Position numbers and translations under genes: made by a program | Assembly: GCA_017409465.1 (NCBI GenBank) | Contig: JAFQSQ010000023.1 | Span: 1-36,242 of the forward strand | Direction: 5' to 3' | Source of the DNA: Akkermansia sp. | GTDB taxonomy: Bacteria > Verrucomicrobiota > Verrucomicrobiia > Verrucomicrobiales > Akkermansiaceae | Length of the DNA: 36,242 nt | In this document: piece after piece, positions 11,296 through 20,510 of the stretch | Numbering within the stretch: the stretch's first letter is position 1 | Layout of the letters: every line of letters starts with the position of its first letter | Notes under the pieces: generated by a model | Databases searched by the model: none | What the model was told of the DNA's origin: nothing | The model's input: the letters and a program-made list of their open reading frames with translations, nothing else

Positions 11296-13704
11296 TCAGC
11301 GCATCCCCCGTCTCCGGCGAGCAAGCAGTCCCGACAGAGCCAGCAGGCTCAGCGTAGCGGATGCAGGCTCCGGCACATTGGCAACCCCTTCCAGATACAC
11401 AACCTTATTAGCAGCATCATAGACCAGAGTCGTAGCATCTGTAATCCGGGCACCACCGAAATAATCTGCCGCCGACAGCGTGTACACCACTCCATCTGTC
11501 GATTTGGCCGTGATACCATCGCTGATGAAGTTGACCGTACTCACATCGCTGAACAACACCACCTGTGCATTCGGGTCATAGTCTGCACTCAGCGTCAGAT
11601 TCAGTTCTATTCTCTCAGCTGTCGAGACAGAAGTCACCGCCAGCGTCAATTCACCGCTGCTCATCGCGAGATGAGCTCCTTGCATATCCAGGACAGCCCC
11701 CTCGGAGAGCGTCAGCAAATCGGCGTCTATCTGCCCACCGGCCAACAAATTGTATGCACGGCTCGCATCATACCCCGTGTTTCTCGTGGTATCCAGAGTG
11801 AACAGCGCCGACTCCTCAATCGCGACACTGTTGGTCGTCACACCCCGTACCGTCAATCCGGCGGCATCGGCAATCACCACGTTCCCGGCACGAAGCAAGG
11901 CCGACTTCAGCACCCCATCCGTCACACCACCCTCCAGCACCAGCTGCGCCGTCTTGTTAACCGTCACATCGTATCCGAGTGCATTCACCTCGGCATTTGC
12001 CACCTTCAGCACAGCCTTGCTTTCCGATGCCACATTGATGGCGTGTGTTTTCAGCACCGCGCTATCCTCCACGCGAAGCGTGCCTCCGTACAGGTTGACA
12101 GTATTGAGCAGTTCGCTCGTGCGTGAAGCAGCGATTTCCGCTGCTGTCCCGTTCGTGCCACCTTTTATTTTCTTCAGGTGGCTTCCCGTCAATTTGCCAC
12201 TGAAAACAATATCACCCGTAGCCTTCTGCGTGACGTCATCAGCATCCTTGTACTCAGCATTCAGGCTCACCGCTGCATTGGCGTAGTTTCCCATGTACAC
12301 GGAGTCATAGAAAGTAATGTGACCTCCGGCTTCGGCAGCAAGCTCCAGCGTATCATCTGCAGCATCCGGAGCCATGTAAATACTGCGAAGCCGGTATGTG
12401 TAAGCTTCATTTCCCAGCCTCGTCGACTCATAATTACCCTCAAAAGTAACGGCCTGATTACCGATGATACGAACACTGTTCTGAGCATAAATCGCACCAC
12501 CCTGAGCTACGGAACCGGCGGTGACGTTCTCATAGGTCGTACTTCCGCTAACGGCGGCTCGGGCATACGCTTCTACATGGTTAGAGGAGAAGGAAACAGT
12601 ATCGTTATTCCGAATACTCAAATCTCCTTTCGCATAGATGGCACCGCCATACGCACCACTCTGAGCTTCTGCTCTGTTGGGTTTTGTATTGCCGGCATGA
12701 GCCTCAGCCACGGCATAATTGCTACTGATACTGATATCACTATTGGCATCCAGACAGATACGGCCATCGGCAAACATCGCGCCGCCCCTACCGGTGGACA
12801 TTGCTCTTAATGTTCCTGATACGTTGCTATAAACCTTGGAAGCATTATCAGCGATTGTTATTTCACCGCCGATATTTCCGCAAACCATTATTTCTCCGGT
12901 TGAATACACAGCACCGCCGGATGCAGACATAGAGGCTCCCTCACTCACCGAGTCCACCGTTGTTGCGCTTGCCCTATTCCCGGAGAAAGACAACTCCTCA
13001 TTATTTGTTATAGAAACGGATTGGCTGTATACAGCTCCTCCCTGAGCGTAACCGCCTGCTCCGGCATTCCCCTTAGCCTGAGCAAAAGCCTCATTGTCAT
13101 CGCATCTGACCTGATTATTGTTTTGCAGGTGAAACTGCTCCGAAAAAACGGCACCTCCATAAGCTGAGGCAGAGGAATACATGCCAAGGACAGGCTCCGG
13201 TTTCGCCAACGCTTTGTTTGATGCTAACTCTACCAAAACATTATTTACCGCAGCAAAATCAGCATTATACAATACAGAACCATGCGAAATCCACACCGTG
13301 TACCAATTATCCCCACTTCCTTGATAACGCCCACTTCCGGAATGCTCATTCGAACTGATTTCGACCGTACCCAATCCATCAATACGGCAGGATGTATCCA
13401 GAAAAACCTGCCCCCCCTCGCTGATGCTCAAATCGTAAGGCGCAGCTTCATTCGAACCTGATGTAAAAGTAAAAGAGCCTCCGCTTATCAGCGGCGTACC
13501 TGCTGTCCACTCTGCATACGAATCCGGGGTATACGCCAAACTCTTTTCGACAACGAACCGCACATTATCTGAAATCTCCCGGTAATCCGATAAATCAGAA
13601 ACAACGGAAAGATACACCGTTGCATCAAACTCCCCTGCCCCGAATGTCGGCAAAACCATCGCACTGAGAGATAAGCTGCACCACACAGAAAAGCATAACT
13701 TCAT
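11296..13704 (-). CDS. Phase-variable PEP-CTERM surface protein with Pmp/autotransporter-like repeats
   Basis: This 802-residue exported protein has a signal peptide (about 1-22) and a C-terminal PEP-CTERM sorting signal: VPEP, a hydrophobic helix and RRRR. Between them are repeats of GGAVYS/GGAIYA followed about 15-25 residues later by FSGN/FSSN. This resembles the GGAI/FxxN pattern of chlamydial polymorphic membrane proteins and predicts a beta-helical passenger (about 180-450). A later Thr/Val/Leu-rich part (about 500-770) looks like autotransporter barrel-side repeats, but no clear beta-barrel is seen. The ATG lies 7 nt after the -10 box of an invertible promoter that is ON here. Likely role is adhesion or surface variation; this is inference. 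Confidence 0.8.
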   Translation of the reverse strand: MKLCFSVWCSLSLSAMVLPTFGAGEFDATVYLSVVSDLSDYREISDNVRFVVEKSLAYTPDSYAEWTAGTPLISGGSFTFTSGSNEAAPYDLSISEGGQVFLDTSCRIDGLGTVEISSNEHSGSGRYQGSGDNWYTVWISHGSVLYNADFAAVNNVLVELASNKALAKPEPVLGMYSSASAYGGAVFSEQFHLQNNNQVRCDDNEAFAQAKGNAGAGGYAQGGAVYSQSVSITNNEELSFSGNRASATTVDSVSEGASMSASGGAVYSTGEIMVCGNIGGEITIADNASKVYSNVSGTLRAMSTGRGGAMFADGRICLDANSDISISSNYAVAEAHAGNTKPNRAEAQSGAYGGAIYAKGDLSIRNNDTVSFSSNHVEAYARAAVSGSTTYENVTAGSVAQGGAIYAQNSVRIIGNQAVTFEGNYESTRLGNEAYTYRLRSIYMAPDAADDTLELAAEAGGHITFYDSVYMGNYANAAVSLNAEYKDADDVTQKATGDIVFSGKLTGSHLKKIKGGTNGTAAEIAASRTSELLNTVNLYGGTLRVEDSAVLKTHAINVASESKAVLKVANAEVNALGYDVTVNKTAQLVLEGGVTDGVLKSALLRAGNVVIADAAGLTVRGVTTNSVAIEESALFTLDTTRNTGYDASRAYNLLAGGQIDADLLTLSEGAVLDMQGAHLAMSSGELTLAVTSVSTAERIELNLTLSADYDPNAQVVLFSDVSTVNFISDGITAKSTDGVVYTLSAADYFGGARITDATTLVYDAANKVVYLEGVANVPEPASATLSLLALSGLLARRRRGMR

Positions 13705-13711
13705 GGCACGG

Positions 13712-13741
13712 ACTATACATCATTGTGGGTGCTGGAGTCAA
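13712..13741 (-). promoter_or_regulatory. Split invertible promoter of the PEP-CTERM gene (ON)
   Basis: On the minus strand, -35 TTGACT (13736-13741) is 18 bp from -10 TATAGT (13712-13717). The gene's ATG (13704) follows after 7 nt. The -35 lies inside the invertible segment and the -10 outside it, with the left inverted-repeat arm filling the spacer. Inversion would remove the -35. Confidence 0.8.
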
Positions 13742-13891
13742 TGTTATTTTGCTCCAAATCTTTGATTTTCTGCAAGATGGTTTATTCGATAGGTTGGGAG
13801 CATTCGCTCTGAAAAGGAGAAAATACGACTTGAAAATGCAGTGATTCATCTCACAATAAGTCAGTAATCCAGGATACAGCACCCACAATGA
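13720..13891. repeat. Invertible DNA switch 1 (15-bp inverted repeats, 142-bp segment)
   Basis: The arms TCATTGTGGGTGCTG (13720-13734) and CAGCACCCACAATGA (13877-13891) are perfect inverted repeats. The 142-bp segment between them (13735-13876) is homologous to the segment of switch 2 (18705-18846) but in the opposite orientation, with about 12 mismatches by hand alignment. The same DNA found in both orientations between matching arms next to a tyrosine recombinase is strong evidence of site-specific inversion. The right arm contains the recombinase start codon. Confidence 0.88.
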
Positions 13892-14892
13892 ATACGGCAA
13901 ACAAGATACTGAAAGAGACAGGGCTCAGGGCAGAAGATGCGGCACGGTTGGCATTGGAATGTCGAGAAGCGTTAGGAGACTTAGCATCAGGCAAGAACCG
14001 TGCAGCTCTCATCCTGCTGCTGAGGCGAGCAATGCAGGAAGGAGCGCGGGTGGTGAGGAATGCAGAGCAGACGGTGACGCTGGAGGAAGCAGCCTGGGCC
14101 AGTGTGGAAGCGAGGCGACATTTGCGGCCGACCACACGGCGGGATCTGCGGCATTTTGTGCGAAGAATTCTGCGGGTGGAGGGAGCCGCGAAGTACCCAC
14201 TGCGGGAGATGCGGACGGATGATTGCCGACGGATTCTGGCAGCAGCATTCGGAAGCAGTCAGAGCAGTTATGAGAAAGGCCGAACGATACTGCACAGCAT
14301 CTTTACCTACGGTATACAGCGGGAATGGTGCGATGCGAATCCGGTGAGCCGTATCGAGACCCCGAGAGTGAAAGAACAGGCGATACTCCCACTGACTCTG
14401 CCGGAGGTAGAGCAGCTGCTGGCGACGGCGCAGATGCCGGAGTTCCGCGACATGCGTTTCTCCCTGAGGCTGATGCTGTATTCCGGGGTGCGCCCGGCAG
14501 AGGTAGAGCGAGTGCAGCCTGAAGATATCCTGCGCCGGGAGCAACAACTCATCATTCGCCCCCGCACGAGCAAGACAGGAGGCGGTCGGATGGTGCCTCT
14601 ACGGCATACCGCTGAGCTGAAAGCAGAGGATTACCGCATACCGCGCAACTGGCAGCGACGGTGGAAAGCGCTACGCCGAGCCGCAGGCTTTCGGCACTGG
14701 GTACCGGATGTCTGCCGCCACACCTTTGCAACCTATCACGCCGCGCACTACCGTAATCTGCCGGCACTGCAGCTGGAGATGGGACACCGGGACAGCACGC
14801 TGCTGCGTACCCGCTACACCACCCCCATGACAGACAGGGTAGCTCGCCAATTCTGGGGTATCAATAAATCAGAGAGTCCGATGAAACCATGA
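13888..14892 (+). CDS. Tyrosine recombinase (probable DNA invertase of the promoter switches)
   Basis: The 334-residue protein has a SAM-like core-binding domain (about 62-155) and a phage-integrase catalytic domain. Catalytic residues are Arg202 (SGVRPAE), Lys229 (TSKTGG), Arg277 (DVCRHTF), His300 (MGHRD) and the nucleophile Tyr310 (RTRYTTP). The first His/Lys of the HxxR box appears to be Asp274. The ATG lies inside the right inverted-repeat arm of switch 1 with no Shine-Dalgarno. The first 60 bp are identical to those of the decayed copy at 18858. It probably inverts switch 1 in cis and perhaps switch 2 in trans. TTGAAA-N16-CACAAT inside the segment might be its promoter, which is weak evidence. 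Confidence 0.9.
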   Translation: MNTANKILKETGLRAEDAARLALECREALGDLASGKNRAALILLLRRAMQEGARVVRNAEQTVTLEEAAWASVEARRHLRPTTRRDLRHFVRRILRVEGAAKYPLREMRTDDCRRILAAAFGSSQSSYEKGRTILHSIFTYGIQREWCDANPVSRIETPRVKEQAILPLTLPEVEQLLATAQMPEFRDMRFSLRLMLYSGVRPAEVERVQPEDILRREQQLIIRPRTSKTGGGRMVPLRHTAELKAEDYRIPRNWQRRWKALRRAAGFRHWVPDVCRHTFATYHAAHYRNLPALQLEMGHRDSTLLRTRYTTPMTDRVARQFWGINKSESPMKP

Positions 14893-15018: not shown

Positions 15019-18000
15019 TTATTTGGCACCTGCCGCTTTTAATAGTTGCACAACTTCGTCGTGTCCTTTATTTTGAGCCATTTGTAAGGCACTTAATCCT
15101 TTTCTATTAACTTTATTGACCTTTATCCCAGGAACTTTCAGCAACAATTGGACGATTTCCTTATTCCCTTTAATTGCAGCTCTCTGTAGTGCTGTTAACT
15201 GAGAATCATCAACTTTATTTACATCTATCCCCGGGAATTCAAGCAGGAGTTTTACAATGGGAAGATTACCTCGCCCCGCAGCTATTGCCAGCGCAGCCCC
15301 CTTATTGATGTCTATTCCCTCCACGGAAAGGAGCAGTTTCACAATTCCGATATTCTCTGCATTACACGCCGTCCACAAGGGATTACCGGCATTGACATCC
15401 GCTCCCGAAGATATCAATTTTTGTACGATATCGTCATGTCCTGCTGATACGGCATAGCATAGTGGCGTTTCCTTATCCCTGCGTATGTTTACATTGATGC
15501 CGGGAACGGACAGCAAGATGTCAACCAGTTCTGTTATTCCGAGAGCGCATGCGTTATGCAGTGCGCTAACACCTGCTCCCCGTTCATCGGAAGGCATATA
15601 ATTGACATCCTTTCCTGCAATGATATCGTTAAGCGTTCGCTGTAATTCGCTTTTACATGAGCCAAGCCACACGTCCCCGGGCAACAGGGAATCCAGCTGC
15701 TCAGCATGTTTTTTTAGTTTTACTTTCACTTCATCGGAAATCCCGGTTCCCTTTTGGGGTGAAGAGGATGTTTTTTGGGGCACTCCGTTTTTTGCCGTTC
15801 GAATGAGCTCTCTAATTTTACCCTCCTGGTCATGACCGATGCATGCTTCTACAGATGCTCCCTTTGCTGTGCGCAATGAACAGTCTGCACCATGCTCCAC
15901 CAGCCATTTGACAATATCATAATGTCCTAACCCGCAGGCATTGTGCAAAGCCGTTGTACCGTTAGCATTTTCCAGTTTTGTATTGACTGATTCCCCCGCT
16001 GCAATACGCGGAAGAATGTCCATCAAGCGCTTTTGGTAGAGTTTGAGAGTCGCATCGTTGTATTCCGTTTGCTTGAGCTTATCAATGAGCGTAGTCAGCG
16101 AATCGGAATCCGGCTCAGCAGACTCTTGCGTGTCTTCAGCCTCAGAAACCGACGAATCGGTGTTTTCCTGTGAGGATACCTCCTCGTTTTGTTCGAGCTT
16201 TTTGCGTTTTGCCGCTTTTAACAACTCGGCAATCTCCGGATACTTTCGAGCGGTTTCGGAATCTATGCGTATATCGGTATCAATTTCAGGTCTTTCGAGC
16301 AATAGCTTCACAATCTCTGTATGTCCACCTCTAGCAGCTGCGGCCAGAGGGGCCTCCTTAGATACATCCGCCCCGGCTGCAATTAACATCTGCACAATCT
16401 CTGTATGCCCTTTTTCAGCAGCTTTTACCAGAGGGGTCCCCTTAGATACATCCGCCCCGGCTGCAATTAACATCTGCACAATCTCTGTATGCCCTTCTCC
16501 GGCTGCACACTCAAGTGCATTGAACTCGCTCCACATATACACAGACCCAAAAGGCCCAGATTTGGAGGACAATGCAGATCCGGAAGCAATGAAAGCAATT
16601 ATTGCCTCTTTGGGGAAGTGCTTCGAAGGCTCCAGACTCCAGCAAAAGTATATGCTCGATACATAAGCGTAATCACTAAGGGCAACGTTACCCTCTTTAA
16701 ACATTTTGTAATTGTACAAGAATTCTTTTGAAATTTTTCCTTTACTATCATCAACTTTACCGGAGAAAATATTCTCCGTAGTTGCGTACTCGTCAATAAT
16801 CTCGCACTTCTGCAGCATCTCAACAGCTTCATCCAGGGATATCAACTTAGTATCACCAAGAGCTTTCTGCATCTTGATGGCTTGTTCATCCCCCAACAGA
16901 GCCAATACCGCCGAGGAGGCTTTCCGTTTCGCTATCGAGAGAGCGGATTGCGCTATACCTGCATCATCTTTCGTTGTCACCTTGGGATCAGCCCCGGCAT
17001 CCAGCAGCAGCTTGACTATCTCAAGATTATTCTTACCCACCGCTGCCATGAGCGGGGTATAGGCAGTAAATTCCTGTACTGCATCCAACGGAGCGCCTGC
17101 ATCCAGCAGCATTTTCAGTCTCTCCGTCTGTCCGTCGTCAATGCAGCGGAAGAGCTTATCTGCCAGCTTGTTCGGGGTAGCCTTGGCTCCGGCTTTGATG
17201 AGGATTCCGGCCATCTCTGCATCATTGTCGCGCCCATCCTGCAGAACCATATCCAGCACGGTCACTTTCTCTCCCCCCAGTTCCGCACGGGTGGCGTTTA
17301 CATTTCCTCCCAGTTCAATGAGCAGATTGAGCATCTTTGTGTTCCCTTTGTCTGCGGCTGCCATCAGAGCAGTATAATCCGTAGCCGATTTCTGCACCTC
17401 CAGACTCATTCCATGGCGAACAAGAGCCCGGAGAAGGTCTTCTTTTTCTTCCAGCGCAGCCTGAACAACATGAGGCTGCTCCATCTCCAGGAATTCCGTC
17501 TTCTTTGCTCCGGCTGAGGCCAGATAATCCAGCATGGCGATGTCTCCCATCTTCACCGCGAGATTCCACGGAGTCTCCCCAAACGCACCGATTTTTGACT
17601 TGGCATTCACATCTGCGCCCAACTCCACCAAGGCGCTGACTACCTCCACGGGAACCATGAATCCCTTGGAATCTGCTACAGTGAGCAGGTTGGCAATATA
17701 GGGGAGCGCATTCAGCTCTGCATCACCATTCAGGTAAGCTTCCACCTGTTTGCAAAACAAACCCTCGTACATATTCGAAGCGTCTCGGGGAGACTTTGCC
17801 AGTTTACCCTGTTCATAAAGAGCTTCCAGCGGATTCGGTCTTGCGAAAACAAAATTGATGAGAACAATCAACCCGACTACCGCTGCGATACCGCCGCTCA
17901 GAATAGCAGCAGTTCTGCCGGGTCTCCGCAACAGGGTAGCAGCTTTGCCAGCAATAGCTGCCACAAACGGCGGCATCTTTTCATCCTCACCGGCCAGCCC

Positions 18001-18630
18001 ATCGGCCTCAGAGCCATACTTATTGGCAGGTGCGGAGGGTTGGATGAAGAAATACAGCAAAATCAATGCACCCACGCCCGGAATGAGCCCCAACAGCAGA
18101 AGTCTCCAATCTCTACCCGTATCGTGCAGACGCCGCACGCAGAGAGAAAGTCCCGGAAGCAACATGAACAAACCGTATACCATTACCAGAATGCTGCACG
18201 CCAGCTGGGGAAGCAGGATTGCGGTCTCTGTATACAAGCACAAAACCGTTGCCACTACATTCAGTAGTGAAACCGACATCACCACGATGAAGTTGCCCAA
18301 AGCCAGATACCAGAATTCGGGGCGGGAAGCACGGCCATCGAATTTAGTGTACCGTTGCAGGCAGGATTTAAAAGCAGTCTTGATTCCCCATTTACCCGGA
18401 ACACCGGAAGGAGACGGTGACTGAGACACGGAAGGTTCCGGAGCAGCCTTCTCTGGTTCGGATATCGCGTCCCCTTTCGCCGCTTCTTTTTCTGCTTTTT
18501 GCTCCGGCTTAGCTTCTGCCGCTTTTTGAGAAGCCAGAGCAGCAGCTACGGCAGCCGCCACGATTTTTTCCATCTCCGGCGTGAGATGAGGCGCGGCAGT
18601 CTCACCCGTATCCTTTGTACGCGTATCCAT
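15019..18630 (-). CDS. DUF805-ankyrin repeat membrane protein, phase-variable (OFF here)
   Basis: This 1203-residue protein begins with an Ala/Lys/Glu-rich charged region (about 20-75). A DUF805 membrane domain follows (about 84-206; hallmarks FDGRASRPEFW, CVRRLHDTGRDW, NKYG), then one more membrane helix (242-262). Three groups of ankyrin repeats follow, with motifs such as TPLMAAVGKNNLEIVKLLLDAGAD, HTEIVQMLIAAGAD and TALHNACGLGHYDIVKWLVEHGAD in shortened form. A low-complexity linker separates the middle and last groups. It likely displays a long protein-binding solenoid from the membrane. The promoter upstream has only a -10; its -35 is turned away. The leader would be about 45 nt. Partner unknown. 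Confidence 0.85.
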   Translation of the reverse strand: MDTRTKDTGETAAPHLTPEMEKIVAAAVAAALASQKAAEAKPEQKAEKEAAKGDAISEPEKAAPEPSVSQSPSPSGVPGKWGIKTAFKSCLQRYTKFDGRASRPEFWYLALGNFIVVMSVSLLNVVATVLCLYTETAILLPQLACSILVMVYGLFMLLPGLSLCVRRLHDTGRDWRLLLLGLIPGVGALILLYFFIQPSAPANKYGSEADGLAGEDEKMPPFVAAIAGKAATLLRRPGRTAAILSGGIAAVVGLIVLINFVFARPNPLEALYEQGKLAKSPRDASNMYEGLFCKQVEAYLNGDAELNALPYIANLLTVADSKGFMVPVEVVSALVELGADVNAKSKIGAFGETPWNLAVKMGDIAMLDYLASAGAKKTEFLEMEQPHVVQAALEEKEDLLRALVRHGMSLEVQKSATDYTALMAAADKGNTKMLNLLIELGGNVNATRAELGGEKVTVLDMVLQDGRDNDAEMAGILIKAGAKATPNKLADKLFRCIDDGQTERLKMLLDAGAPLDAVQEFTAYTPLMAAVGKNNLEIVKLLLDAGADPKVTTKDDAGIAQSALSIAKRKASSAVLALLGDEQAIKMQKALGDTKLISLDEAVEMLQKCEIIDEYATTENIFSGKVDDSKGKISKEFLYNYKMFKEGNVALSDYAYVSSIYFCWSLEPSKHFPKEAIIAFIASGSALSSKSGPFGSVYMWSEFNALECAAGEGHTEIVQMLIAAGADVSKGTPLVKAAEKGHTEIVQMLIAAGADVSKEAPLAAAARGGHTEIVKLLLERPEIDTDIRIDSETARKYPEIAELLKAAKRKKLEQNEEVSSQENTDSSVSEAEDTQESAEPDSDSLTTLIDKLKQTEYNDATLKLYQKRLMDILPRIAAGESVNTKLENANGTTALHNACGLGHYDIVKWLVEHGADCSLRTAKGASVEACIGHDQEGKIRELIRTAKNGVPQKTSSSPQKGTGISDEVKVKLKKHAEQLDSLLPGDVWLGSCKSELQRTLNDIIAGKDVNYMPSDERGAGVSALHNACALGITELVDILLSVPGINVNIRRDKETPLCYAVSAGHDDIVQKLISSGADVNAGNPLWTACNAENIGIVKLLLSVEGIDINKGAALAIAAGRGNLPIVKLLLEFPGIDVNKVDDSQLTALQRAAIKGNKEIVQLLLKVPGIKVNKVNRKGLSALQMAQNKGHDEVVQLLKAAGAK
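16356..16496 (-). repeat. 84-bp tandem repeat within the ankyrin gene
   Basis: A 57-bp core is identical at 16356-16412 and 16440-16496, with an 84-bp period (28 codons). It encodes HTEIVQMLIAAGADVSK twice. Near-perfect DNA identity points to recent duplication and could let the repeat number change by slippage or recombination. The 28-residue period is shorter than the canonical 33-residue ankyrin unit. Confidence 0.8.
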
Positions 18631-18681: not shown

Positions 18682-18687
18682 ACTATA
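18682..18687 (-). promoter_or_regulatory. Orphan -10 box of the ankyrin gene (OFF state)
   Basis: TATAGT on the minus strand sits just outside the left arm of switch 2, exactly as in switch 1. At the position where switch 1 has TTGACT, this locus has CAAGAT, which is no -35. The matching TTGACT lies at the far end of the segment (18840-18845), pointing rightward. Inversion would restore TTGACT-N18-TATAGT. Confidence 0.75.
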
Positions 18688-18689
18688 CA

Positions 18690-18861
18690 TCATTGAGAGT
18701 GCTGTATCTTGGATTACTGACTTATTGTGAGATGAATCACTGCATTTTCAAGGCGTATTTTCTCCTTTTCAGAGCGGGTGTTCCCGATCTGTCGAAGGAA
18801 ATATCTTGCAGAAAATCAAAGATTTGGAGCAAAATAACATTGACTCCAGCACTCTCAATGA
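18690..18861. repeat. Invertible DNA switch 2 (15-bp inverted repeats, 142-bp segment)
   Basis: Arms TCATTGAGAGTGCTG (18690-18704) and CAGCACTCTCAATGA (18847-18861) are perfect inverted repeats around 142 bp. The arm differs from that of switch 1 at two central positions, changed in both arms. The segment is in the opposite orientation to switch 1 relative to the conserved external -10. The right arm contains the start codon of a decayed recombinase. Confidence 0.87.
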
Positions 18862-19094
18862 ATACGGCAAACAAGATACTGAAAGAGACAGGGCTCAGGG
18901 CAGAAGATGCGGCACGGAAGATTGCCGCCGGATTCCGGCAACAGCATTCGGAAGCGGTCAGAGCAGTTATGAAAAAGGCCGAACGATACTGCACAGCATC
19001 TTTACCTACGGTATACAGCGAGAGTAACAGCTTATCATTCGCCCACGCACGACAAGACTGGTGCAATGCAAAGAAAAAATGTTTTTTGCGGTGA
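18858..19094 (+). pseudogene. Decayed tyrosine recombinase (internal deletions)
   Basis: The first 60 bp (18858-18917) are identical to 13888-13947 of the intact recombinase. The sequence then jumps to homology with about 14218-14324, then to a short piece like 14540-14575, and ends with the region like 14929-14956 downstream of the intact gene. All catalytic residues are lost. After about 20 residues the frame shifts, giving a 78-residue ORF of no expected activity. Deletion ends fall at short direct repeats present in the intact copy, such as GATGCGGCACGG/GATGCGGACGG. It is a remnant of a duplicated switch-recombinase module. Confidence 0.85.
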
Positions 19095-19124: not shown

Positions 19125-20510
19125 ATGAAAATGTTTTCAGACACAGAAACGACGGAATTATTCGGAGCAGCAGACATGGCGCAACCTCTGCCATCAGAAA
19201 GCATACCGGAGCGGGCGATGCGCCCGGCGGATGCCATGGAGCTGATTCGCGAGGAGCTGATGCTGGACGGCAACGCCAGGCAGAATCTGGCGACTTTCTG
19301 CCAGACCTGGGATGACCCGCAGGTGCGGCGGCTCATGGATCTCTGCATCAGCAAAAACATGATTGATAAGGATGAGTACCCGCAATGCGCCGAAATCGAG
19401 CAGCGCTGCGTGCGTATGCTGGCCGCGCTGTGGCACGCGCCGAAACCGGCCGAGAGCATCGGCTGCTCCACCATCGGCTCCAGCGAAGCCTGTATGCTGG
19501 GTGGACTGGCGGCACTGCACCGCTGGCGCGCGCGCCGCAAGGCGGCCGGCAAGCCCTGTGACCGCCCGAATCTGGTCTGCGGGCCGGTGCAGATCTGCTG
19601 GCACAAGTTCTGCCGCTACTGGGACGTCGAGATGCGCGAGGTTCCCATGGCCGAGGGGCGCTACTGCATGACCCCGGAAGAGATGCTCAAGAGGGTGGAT
19701 GAGAACACTATCTGTGTCGTCCCCACCTTCGGCGTCACCTATACCGGACTATTCGAGTACCCGGAGGCCATCTGCCACGCCCTTGACAAGCTGGCCTCCG
19801 CGGGGGGGCCGGATATCGACGTCCACGTAGACGGCGCCAGTGGCGGATTCCTGGCACCGTTCTGCGCACCCAATATCAAGTTTGACTTCCGGCTCAGTCG
19901 CATCAAGTCCATCAGCTCCAGCGGCCACAAGTATGGTCTGGCTCCTCTGGGCTGCGGCTGGGTTGTCTGGCGACACAAAGACGACATGCCCGCCGAACTC
20001 TGTTTTGCCGTCAACTACCTGGGGGGCAGTGTACCCACCATCGCGCTGAACTTTTCACGCCCGGCGGGTCAGGTCATTGCCCAGTATTTCAATTTTGTAC
20101 GGCTGGGGATGCAGGGCTACCGCCGCGTCCACGAAGCCGCCTATAATGTGGCCGCCTATCTGGCGACAGAAATCGCCAAGCTGGGTGAGTTCGAGTTCCT
20201 CTGCACCGGCAGCGTCAAGGAGGGCATACCGGCCGTCTGTTTCCGGCTGAAGCCCGGCTACAGCCCGGGGTATAATCTCTATGAACTCTCCGACCGCCTG
20301 CGCACCCGCGGCTGGCTGGTACCGGCCTTCAGTCTGCCCCGCCCGATTGACCACATCATCGTGATGCGTATCATGGTTCGCCGGGGCTTCACCATGGATA
20401 TGGCCGCACTCCTGCTGCAGGACATCATCCGCAGTATCCATTTTCTGGCGCACCACTCACCGGCACAGCACCTCGAAGAGCATGAAGCCATGAGCTTCAA
20501 ACATACCTGA
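19125..20510 (+). CDS. gadB: Glutamate decarboxylase
   Basis: GadB converts L-glutamate to GABA and CO2 using PLP, consuming a proton, and supports acid resistance. The 461 residues closely follow E. coli Gad[18 protein letters not shown] (48-64), STIGSSEA (115-122), [12 protein letters not shown] (235-246) and the PLP lysine in SSGHKYG (Lys269). The C-terminus ends FKHT as in E. coli, where a histidine in this tail takes part in pH-dependent auto-inhibition. A GAGG lies 4 nt before the ATG. No glutamate/GABA antiporter is visible. It sits directly behind the decayed switch locus, so its regulation may have been affected by that insertion. Confidence 0.95.

What the first reader, a model, noticed from the sequence alone, without database searches (positions are those of the whole stretch)
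13711..13891. Split-promoter inversion switch controlling a PEP-CTERM/Pmp-like surface protein
The -10 (13712-13717) is fixed outside the inverted repeat and the -35 (13736-13741) is inside the 142-bp invertible segment, so the 15-bp recombination arm occupies the promoter spacer. Inversion does not move a whole promoter; it assembles or breaks one. In this sequence it is assembled, with an 18-bp spacer, 7 nt from the ATG. Most well-known invertible promoters (fimS, Hin, Bacteroides polysaccharide loci) carry the full promoter in the invertible DNA. Recombinase bound to the arm would also compete with RNA polymerase.
Basis: partly seen in the sequence, partly recalled or inferred. Interest (0 to 1): 0.95.

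Follow-up and report, generated by a model that had tools for sequence, protein, structure and literature searches.

The report
Flip switch that splits its promoter
In an Akkermansia genome, a short DNA segment between mirror-image repeats carries only one half of a predicted promoter, so that flipping it would assemble or break the promoter of a likely surface-protein gene, and the same layout is found in both orientations beside related recombinase genes in other genomes of the genus.

Summary
Of 95 loci scored in the genus (both window switches included), 60 have a perfect 12-bp inverted repeat at the recombinase start (0 of 95 shuffled). Of 68 kept, 64 have a -10-like hexamer outside the left arm, 2 outside the right; strict TTGAC is at one inner edge in 44, both in 0, neither in 24. 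The published CGGATT..AATCCG invertons show the layout more weakly; two orthologous pairs of them are inverted between close genomes with collinear flanks. Close recombinases often sit beside unrelated genes, so the switch looks like a portable cassette. Transcription, flipping at this very locus and recombinase-polymerase competition are untested. Akkermansia invertible promoters are published; my searches found no description of a split one, but the key 2019 paper was not held. New variant of a known kind.

The parts
11296..13704 (-). 802-aa predicted surface protein: signal peptide by eye, weak Pmp repeats, C-terminal PEP-CTERM-like signal
13712..13717 (-). fixed -10 box TATAGT, outside the repeat
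   Evidence: a -10-like hexamer lies outside the left arm in 64 of 68 loci, outside the right in 2
13720..13734 (.). left arm of the inverted repeat; forms 15 of the 18 spacer bases
13736..13741 (-). -35 box TTGACT, inside the invertible segment
13735..13876 (.). 142-bp predicted invertible segment, here in the ON (assembled) orientation
13877..13891 (.). right arm; contains the recombinase start codon
13888..14892 (+). 334-aa tyrosine recombinase, predicted to flip the segment
   Evidence: PF00589 51.1 bits; catalytic R, K, R, Y in 97 of 97 aligned
18682..18687 (-). fixed -10 box TATAGT of the second switch
18690..18704 (.). left arm of the second switch (two bases different from switch 1)
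18705..18846 (.). 142-bp segment of the second switch, in the opposite (OFF) orientation
18840..18845 (+). -35 box TTGACT of the second switch, now at the right end, facing the recombinase remnant
18847..18861 (.). right arm of the second switch
18859..19027 (+). remnant of a recombinase gene (internally deleted, frame lost)
15019..18630 (-). 1203-aa DUF805/ankyrin-repeat protein, predicted target of the second switch

Best explanation
Window 13720-13891 is a DNA segment between two perfect 15-bp inverted repeats that is predicted to be flipped by the tyrosine recombinase encoded beside it, and flipping would assemble or break the promoter of the likely surface-protein gene on its left, because the predicted -35 box lies inside the segment, the predicted -10 box lies outside it, and the repeat fills the 18-bp spacer. 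Shown by sequence: the repeat, the two hexamers, the spacing, the recombinase beside it, a second copy in the opposite orientation, and the same one-sided layout in most related loci examined in the genus. Inferred: that the recombinase acts on these arms, that RNA polymerase uses these boxes, and that the protein is phase-variable. On the recombinase side only a poor hexamer (TACGGC) stands near the right spacing, so the moved -35 should be nearly silent there. The switch looks like a portable cassette, running from the -10 to the recombinase, that has come to sit upstream of unrelated genes (surface proteins, ankyrin proteins, restriction-modification genes).
For: Repeat, boxes and spacing. 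Second copy inverted, 91% identical over 172 bases, both pairs of arms perfect although the two copies differ at 2 arm positions. Perfect 12-bp repeat at the recombinase start in 60 of 95 loci scored (both window switches included) against 0 of 95 shuffled. -10-like score of 9 or more outside the left arm in 64 of 68, outside the right in 2 of 68, 26% in shuffles; promoter score of 22 or more on the left in 42 of 68, right 2 of 68, shuffles 0.6%; strict TTGAC at the left inner edge in 9, right in 35, both in 0, neither in 24 of 68. Among the 62 loci scoring 19 or more, 12 are ON and 50 OFF. A second inverted paralogue pair in one genome, L085/L080, 89% over 159 bases. Orthologous CGGATT-class switches inverted with collinear flanks: L163/L178 and L168/L134; in that class the better side has a -10 score of 9 or more in 21 of 40 distinct sites against 16% in shuffles. 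An ATG ORF of 150 aa or more, with a stop before it, starts within 120 nt of the left arm in 40 of 62 loci, against 77 of 1220 random points. Arm sequence tracks recombinase sequence in 61 loci, r 0.20, reached by 5 of 2000 permutations. Published flipping and capsule ON/OFF for one CGGATT-class switch (PMC13343947, passages).
Against: No reads were available, so flipping at this locus is not shown; switches 1 and 2 are paralogues, not two states of one place. In switch 2, scored OFF, the scan finds two weak sites (9 of 12, 16-bp spacer) facing the ankyrin gene, one wholly inside the segment (18751-18724) and one from the right arm inwards (18858-18831); shuffles give 0.4. So OFF may not be silent. 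22 of 95 loci have no repeat above the shuffled level (10 of 12 or less), among them two of the five recombinase genes of this genome (L122, L005). 24 of 68 lack strict TTGAC at either edge. Rows are not independent: L112-L116 are orthologues, L045 and L081 identical. L073 and L085 were both scored ON although their segments are inverted to each other (L073 scores under 19), so single calls can be wrong. Of 33 rows with recombinases of 41% identity or less (some places twice, no control run), 11 have a perfect 12-bp repeat, with left promoter scores of only 17-20. A looser ORF count, 51 of 62, is not far above random points, 57%. The cps1 switch would get a poor -10 on flipping, TAATTA. In switch 1 the predicted start lies about one base before the ATG, a nearly leaderless message.
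Confidence: 0.8

Rival explanations
1. Ordinary whole-promoter inversion: a complete promoter lies inside the segment and drives the left gene in one orientation; the hexamers at the arm are coincidence.
For: Each switch has a weak site inside the segment (9 of 12, TTGAAA-16-CACAAT): 13830-13857 facing the recombinase in switch 1, 18751-18724 facing the ankyrin gene in switch 2. Most well-known invertible promoters carry the whole promoter (recalled; PMC11892184 says promoters are often embedded within invertons, passages).
Against: That site is weaker than the arm-spanning one (9 against 10 of 12). The -10 outside one arm only and the -35 inside one edge only, across 68 loci, have no reason under this view. 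It was not checked in the other loci.
Confidence: 0.1
2. The TTGAC and TATA flanks are extended recombinase-binding sequence, not promoter boxes.
For: Both hexamers lie within a plausible recombinase footprint around a short arm (inference).
Against: Two recombination sites should carry the same flanks; here -10-like flanks sit almost always on one arm (64 against 2 of 68) and strict TTGAC never on both inner edges.
Confidence: 0.05
3. A relic: the repeat and recombinase were once a working switch but this copy is locked.
For: A neighbouring recombinase copy is broken; a 501-base DNA query found no orthologue of this very locus in either state.
Against: The recombinase here is an open frame with its catalytic residues, and both switches keep perfectly matching arms although the arms have diverged between them.
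Confidence: 0.05

Closest known systems
Akkermansia invertons of the CGGATT..AATCCG class (Jiang et al. 2019, not held; seen through PMC13343947 and PMC11892184, passages)
   Same: Same genus, short inverted repeats, loops of 102-322 bp in the loci examined, TTGAC just inside one arm and, on the better side, a -10-like hexamer more often than in shuffles; PEP-CTERM genes enriched nearby according to PMC11892184
   Different: The window's arms lack CGGATT, and TTGAC with that arm does not occur in this genome (G000: 0); the window's switch has its recombinase at the arm
fimS, Hin and Bacteroides capsule promoter inversions (recalled)
   Same: Site-specific inversion turns a surface gene on or off
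   Different: There the whole promoter lies in the invertible DNA; here only the -35 does
IS911/IS2 circle-junction promoters (recalled)
   Same: A promoter is assembled by recombination from a -35 on one side and a -10 on the other
   Different: Transposon circle formation, not reversible inversion

Membership tests
CGGATT-class Akkermansia invertons | Arms with CGGATT..AATCCG | tested here: not met
   Arms are CAGCACCCACAATGA; the TTGAC plus CGGATT pattern occurs 0 times in G000
CGGATT-class Akkermansia invertons | Both orientations found in a population | not testable with these tools
   No reads; a paralogue in the opposite orientation only
Whole-promoter inversion switches (fimS, Hin type) | The driving promoter, -35 and -10, lies inside the invertible segment | tested here: not met
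   The best promoter-like site has its -10 at 13712-13717, outside the arm; a weaker site lies inside
Tyrosine recombinases | Phage_integrase domain and catalytic R, K, HxxR, H/W, Y | tested here: met
   PF00589 51.1 bits, cut-off 27.1; R, K, R and Y in 97 of 97, H/W position H in 96 of 97, but the first H of HxxR is D in 97 of 97
XerC/XerD equivalogs | NCBIfam equivalog cut-off | tested here: not met
   XerD 52 bits against 329.6, XerC 51.7 against 335.15
PEP-CTERM proteins | C-terminal PEP-CTERM motif over the curated cut-off | tested here: inconclusive
   Pfam 18.9 bits against 20.7, NCBIfam 15 against 16, residues 777-799; motif visible, exosortase present
Pmp/autotransporter proteins | Autotransporter beta-domain | tested here: not met
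   No PF03797 row at E up to 10

The most novel reading that the evidence does not exclude
Akkermansia uses a genus-wide, portable phase-variation cassette in which the recombination site is the promoter spacer: recombinase and RNA polymerase compete for the same 30 bases, so that a transcribed promoter protects itself from flipping, and the cassette spreads from gene to gene, bringing surface proteins and restriction-modification systems under the same on/off logic.
Probability: 0.35. Interest if true: 0.82.

Novelty: new variant of a known kind. Interest (0 to 1): 0.68.

Why it matters
If true, inversion does not move a promoter but builds or breaks one, with the recombination site as the spacer. 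That ties recombination and transcription to the same DNA and makes the ON/OFF state readable from any assembly or read. It would let the phase states of many Akkermansia genes, restriction-modification genes among them, be called from existing metagenomes, and it offers a simple design for a recombinase-controlled promoter.

Tried and rejected
Orthologues of this very locus by a 501-base DNA query: in the 58 other genomes only three short pieces (27-83 bases, at the right arm or in the recombinase); this is not a deep search. Viral contigs: no relative. Genome contigs: only 4 loci. A published inverton coordinate of strain BAA-835 (2092093-2092283, PMC11892184) did not fall on a repeat in G005, perhaps a differently numbered assembly; dropped. 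Literature searches aimed at a split, partial or hybrid promoter in an invertible element gave nothing to the point. Whether the recombinase has its own promoter in the segment: one weak site, left open. Outside the genus: of 189 genomes of the order, 28 match at E 1e-20, of which 27 are of this genus and 1 is not, so the family looks nearly genus-bound.

Rows dropped: of 99 loci, 4 had too little upstream sequence (L014, L047, L051, L100); of 73 with 11 or 12 matching bases, 5 were dropped for loop or arm length (L028, L059, L097, L102, L107), leaving 68; 6 of these scored below 19 and were left out of the neighbour counts. The loci came from the upper part of the list, itself cut off, so they are not all matches. 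Of the 62 left proteins, 51 were family-scanned, the two window proteins included: two short ones were dropped, eight that have a relative in the set were left out, and L069 by oversight.

Full report
What is there. The window belongs to a 2.03-Mb, 77% complete genome. Its genus is Akkermansia: a locus of a genome that the tool puts in the same genus (L081, G022) is identical to one in a record titled Akkermansia sp. (L045). At 13720-13734 and 13877-13891 lie perfect 15-bp inverted repeats, 142 bp apart. On the minus strand, TTGACT (13741-13736) lies just inside the left arm and TATAGT (13717-13712) just outside it, 18 bp apart; the 802-aa ORF 13704-11296 begins 7 nt later. The predicted start (about 13705, by the usual distance, recalled) leaves almost no leader. 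The protein has a signal peptide by eye, weak Pmp repeats, and the C-terminus VPEPASATLSLLALSGLLARRRR, just under the PEP-CTERM cut-offs; an exosortase is in the genome.

On the other side, the right arm holds the ATG of a 334-aa tyrosine recombinase. In 97 aligned sequences the catalytic R, K, R and Y are invariant, the H/W-position H is kept in 96, and the first H of the HxxR motif is D in all 97; the match to XerD (1a0p) places these residues.

A second switch. At 18690-18861 the same element occurs again, arms CAGCACTCTCAATGA, with TATAGT outside its left arm (18682-18687), 51 nt before an ankyrin/DUF805 gene. Its middle is the reverse complement of the first: 91% identity over 172 bases on opposite strands, while the right flank, arm and first 20 codons of the recombinase, is collinear at 97% over 71 bases. 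By promoter score the first is ON and the second OFF. In the second, TTGACT sits at 18840-18845, facing right. The recombinase copy there is a remnant. Both copies keep perfect arms although they differ at two arm positions; of 16 differences over 172 bases, 10 lie at 13779-13804. Against a clean OFF state: the scan of switch 2 finds two weak sites (9 of 12) facing the ankyrin gene, one wholly inside the segment; the first switch has the mirror of that inner site, facing the recombinase.

Relatives. The recombinase family has a match in 75 of 76 genomes of the genus, but in the order beyond the genus only one genome matched at E 1e-20 (189 genomes). I took loci from the upper part of the list. 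In 95 with enough upstream DNA, the two window switches among them, the best 12-bp repeat was perfect in 60, one short in 13, and no better than chance in 22; mononucleotide-shuffled controls gave 0, 4 and 91. Of the five recombinase genes of this genome, three have a perfect repeat (the window's, L109, L121) and two do not (L122, L005). Arms vary, around CAGCATT..AATGC. In the 68 kept, the -10-like hexamer is outside the left arm (64 against 2 on the right; shuffled 26%), and strict TTGAC is at one inner edge or the other, never both (9 left, 35 right, 24 neither; with TTGC and TTGAT allowed 12, 50, 1 both, 5 neither). The best left promoter beats the best right one in 62 of 68. By score 17 are ON and 51 OFF; in the 62 more certain ones 12 and 50. 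The OFF excess may be real or reflect what the sampled cells were doing. Orthologues and a duplicate are among these rows, so they are not 68 independent events. A second paralogue pair within one genome is inverted, L085 against L080; L073, scored ON with a low score, must be miscalled, because its segment is inverted to that of L085, also ON.

Targets. An ATG ORF of 150 aa or more, with an in-frame stop before it, starts within 120 nt of the left arm in 40 of 62 loci, against 77 of 1220 random points in the flanks; a looser count (51 of 62 against 57%) says little. In 51 left proteins scanned, Pfam families include ankyrin (4 members), ResIII (3), MmeI methyltransferase (2), N6 methylase and HsdM (2 each), Mrr-like (2), outer-membrane barrel (2), autotransporter (1), acyltransferase (1); 25 of 44 families were shown; NCBIfam and PADLOC also list type I and IIG restriction-modification families. 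The tables do not name members, so where I name a locus it is by eye. Among the 22 pairs of recombinases 82% or more identical, 9 have left genes without any blastp match, for example L121/L090, L104/L103, L085/L080, L110/L049, L082/L078; the other 13 are mostly orthologues. In 18 of the 25 unmatched pairs of the top 40, chosen from the top, plus the window pair, identity before the -10 is 8 to 17 of 19 per position, 15 of 19 at its last base, then 3 and 3, and 1 to 9 further on. The -10 positions were picked by a score that favours TA...T, and loci recur among the pairs, so only the drop after the -10 should be read as evidence. I read this as a portable cassette whose edge is the -10; the alternative, exchange of the gene behind a fixed switch, is not excluded.

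The published class. PMC13343947 (passages) reports an inverton by cps1, the motif CGGATT..AATCCG (credited to Jiang et al. 2019), both orientations in culture, mice and people, and capsule following the ON orientation. PMC11892184 (passages) reports the same group, a promoter motif and PEP-CTERM genes nearby, and says nothing on a split promoter in the passages I saw. TTGAC followed by that arm occurs in 26 of 76 genomes, the backward control in none. Of 30 loci fetched, 28 have the partner arm; 24 score OFF and 4 ON. Of 16 sites in G005 (Muc-T by its length, recalled), 15 have a partner arm, 7 ON and 8 OFF, several by narrow margins. A control on 40 distinct sites of the two sets: the better side has a -10 score of 9 or more in 21 against 16% in shuffles, mean 8.8 against 7.0, reached by 0 of 200 shuffled sets; the worse side has it in 1. 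So the layout is there, but the -10 is weaker than in the window's class. Two orthologous pairs are natural inversions: L163 (G005) against L178 (G006), and L168 (G005) against L134 (G007); both flanks collinear, the middle reversed, the TTGAC changing arms while the TA-rich hexamer stays with its flank. A third pair, L166/L177, has the same orientation. Near wza (ORF from 2526716) a repeat at 2526109-2526292, probably the published cps1 inverton, has TTGACA inside the far arm; flipping would place it 17 bp from TAATTA, a poor -10, some 420 bases before the ORF. This supports the layout only weakly. More distant recombinases (41% identity or less) gave a mixed picture: 11 of 33 rows with a perfect repeat, promoter scores 17-20, no control.

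Mechanism. Likely: the recombinase pairs the two arms and exchanges strands within them; the segment flips; TTGACT then lies 18 bp from TATAGT (ON) or faces the recombinase, where only TACGGC stands near that spacing (OFF). Because each arm is the promoter spacer, recombinase and polymerase would contend for it. Steps shown: anatomy, conservation, both orientations among relatives. Steps inferred: enzyme, transcription, competition, phase-variable surface.

Novelty. Inversion switches, and Akkermansia invertons as such, are known. The split architecture and the cassette behaviour I did not find in the library with ten searches, of whose listed papers I opened five and saw passages only. Jiang et al. 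2019 was not held and supplements could not be read, so priority is open. I rate it a new variant of a known kind.

Noticed in passing
window 13888-14892 and 97 aligned recombinases (itself included): The first histidine of the tyrosine recombinase HxxR motif is aspartate in all 97 aligned members of this Akkermansia family.
   Followed up: partly
window 13735-13778 and 13805-13871: Two stretches inside the invertible segment are unchanged or have one change between the two switches while 13779-13804 has ten; they may hold accessory or regulatory sites.
   Followed up: no
L121, L087, L055, L026, L090, L103, L078 (assigned by eye): Genes that look like restriction-modification genes (HsdM, MmeI-like, ResIII/Mrr-like; families counted) lie behind switches of the same kind, which suggests phase-variable restriction in Akkermansia.
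   Followed up: partly
L102: The repeat there has 81-bp arms that reach into the recombinase start, near a contig end; either a mirror duplication or an assembly artefact.
   Followed up: no
G005:C1:2526109-2526292 (L181): Repeat upstream of wza, probably the published cps1 inverton; after flipping its -10 would be poor, TAATTA.
   Followed up: partly
window 19125-20510: A glutamate decarboxylase gene (TIGR01788, 613 bits) starts about 100 bases after the recombinase remnant of the second switch.
   Followed up: no
L210, L211, L212 (G005): More distant recombinases (32-37% identity) also have perfect inverted repeats upstream, with less clear promoter boxes.
   Followed up: partly
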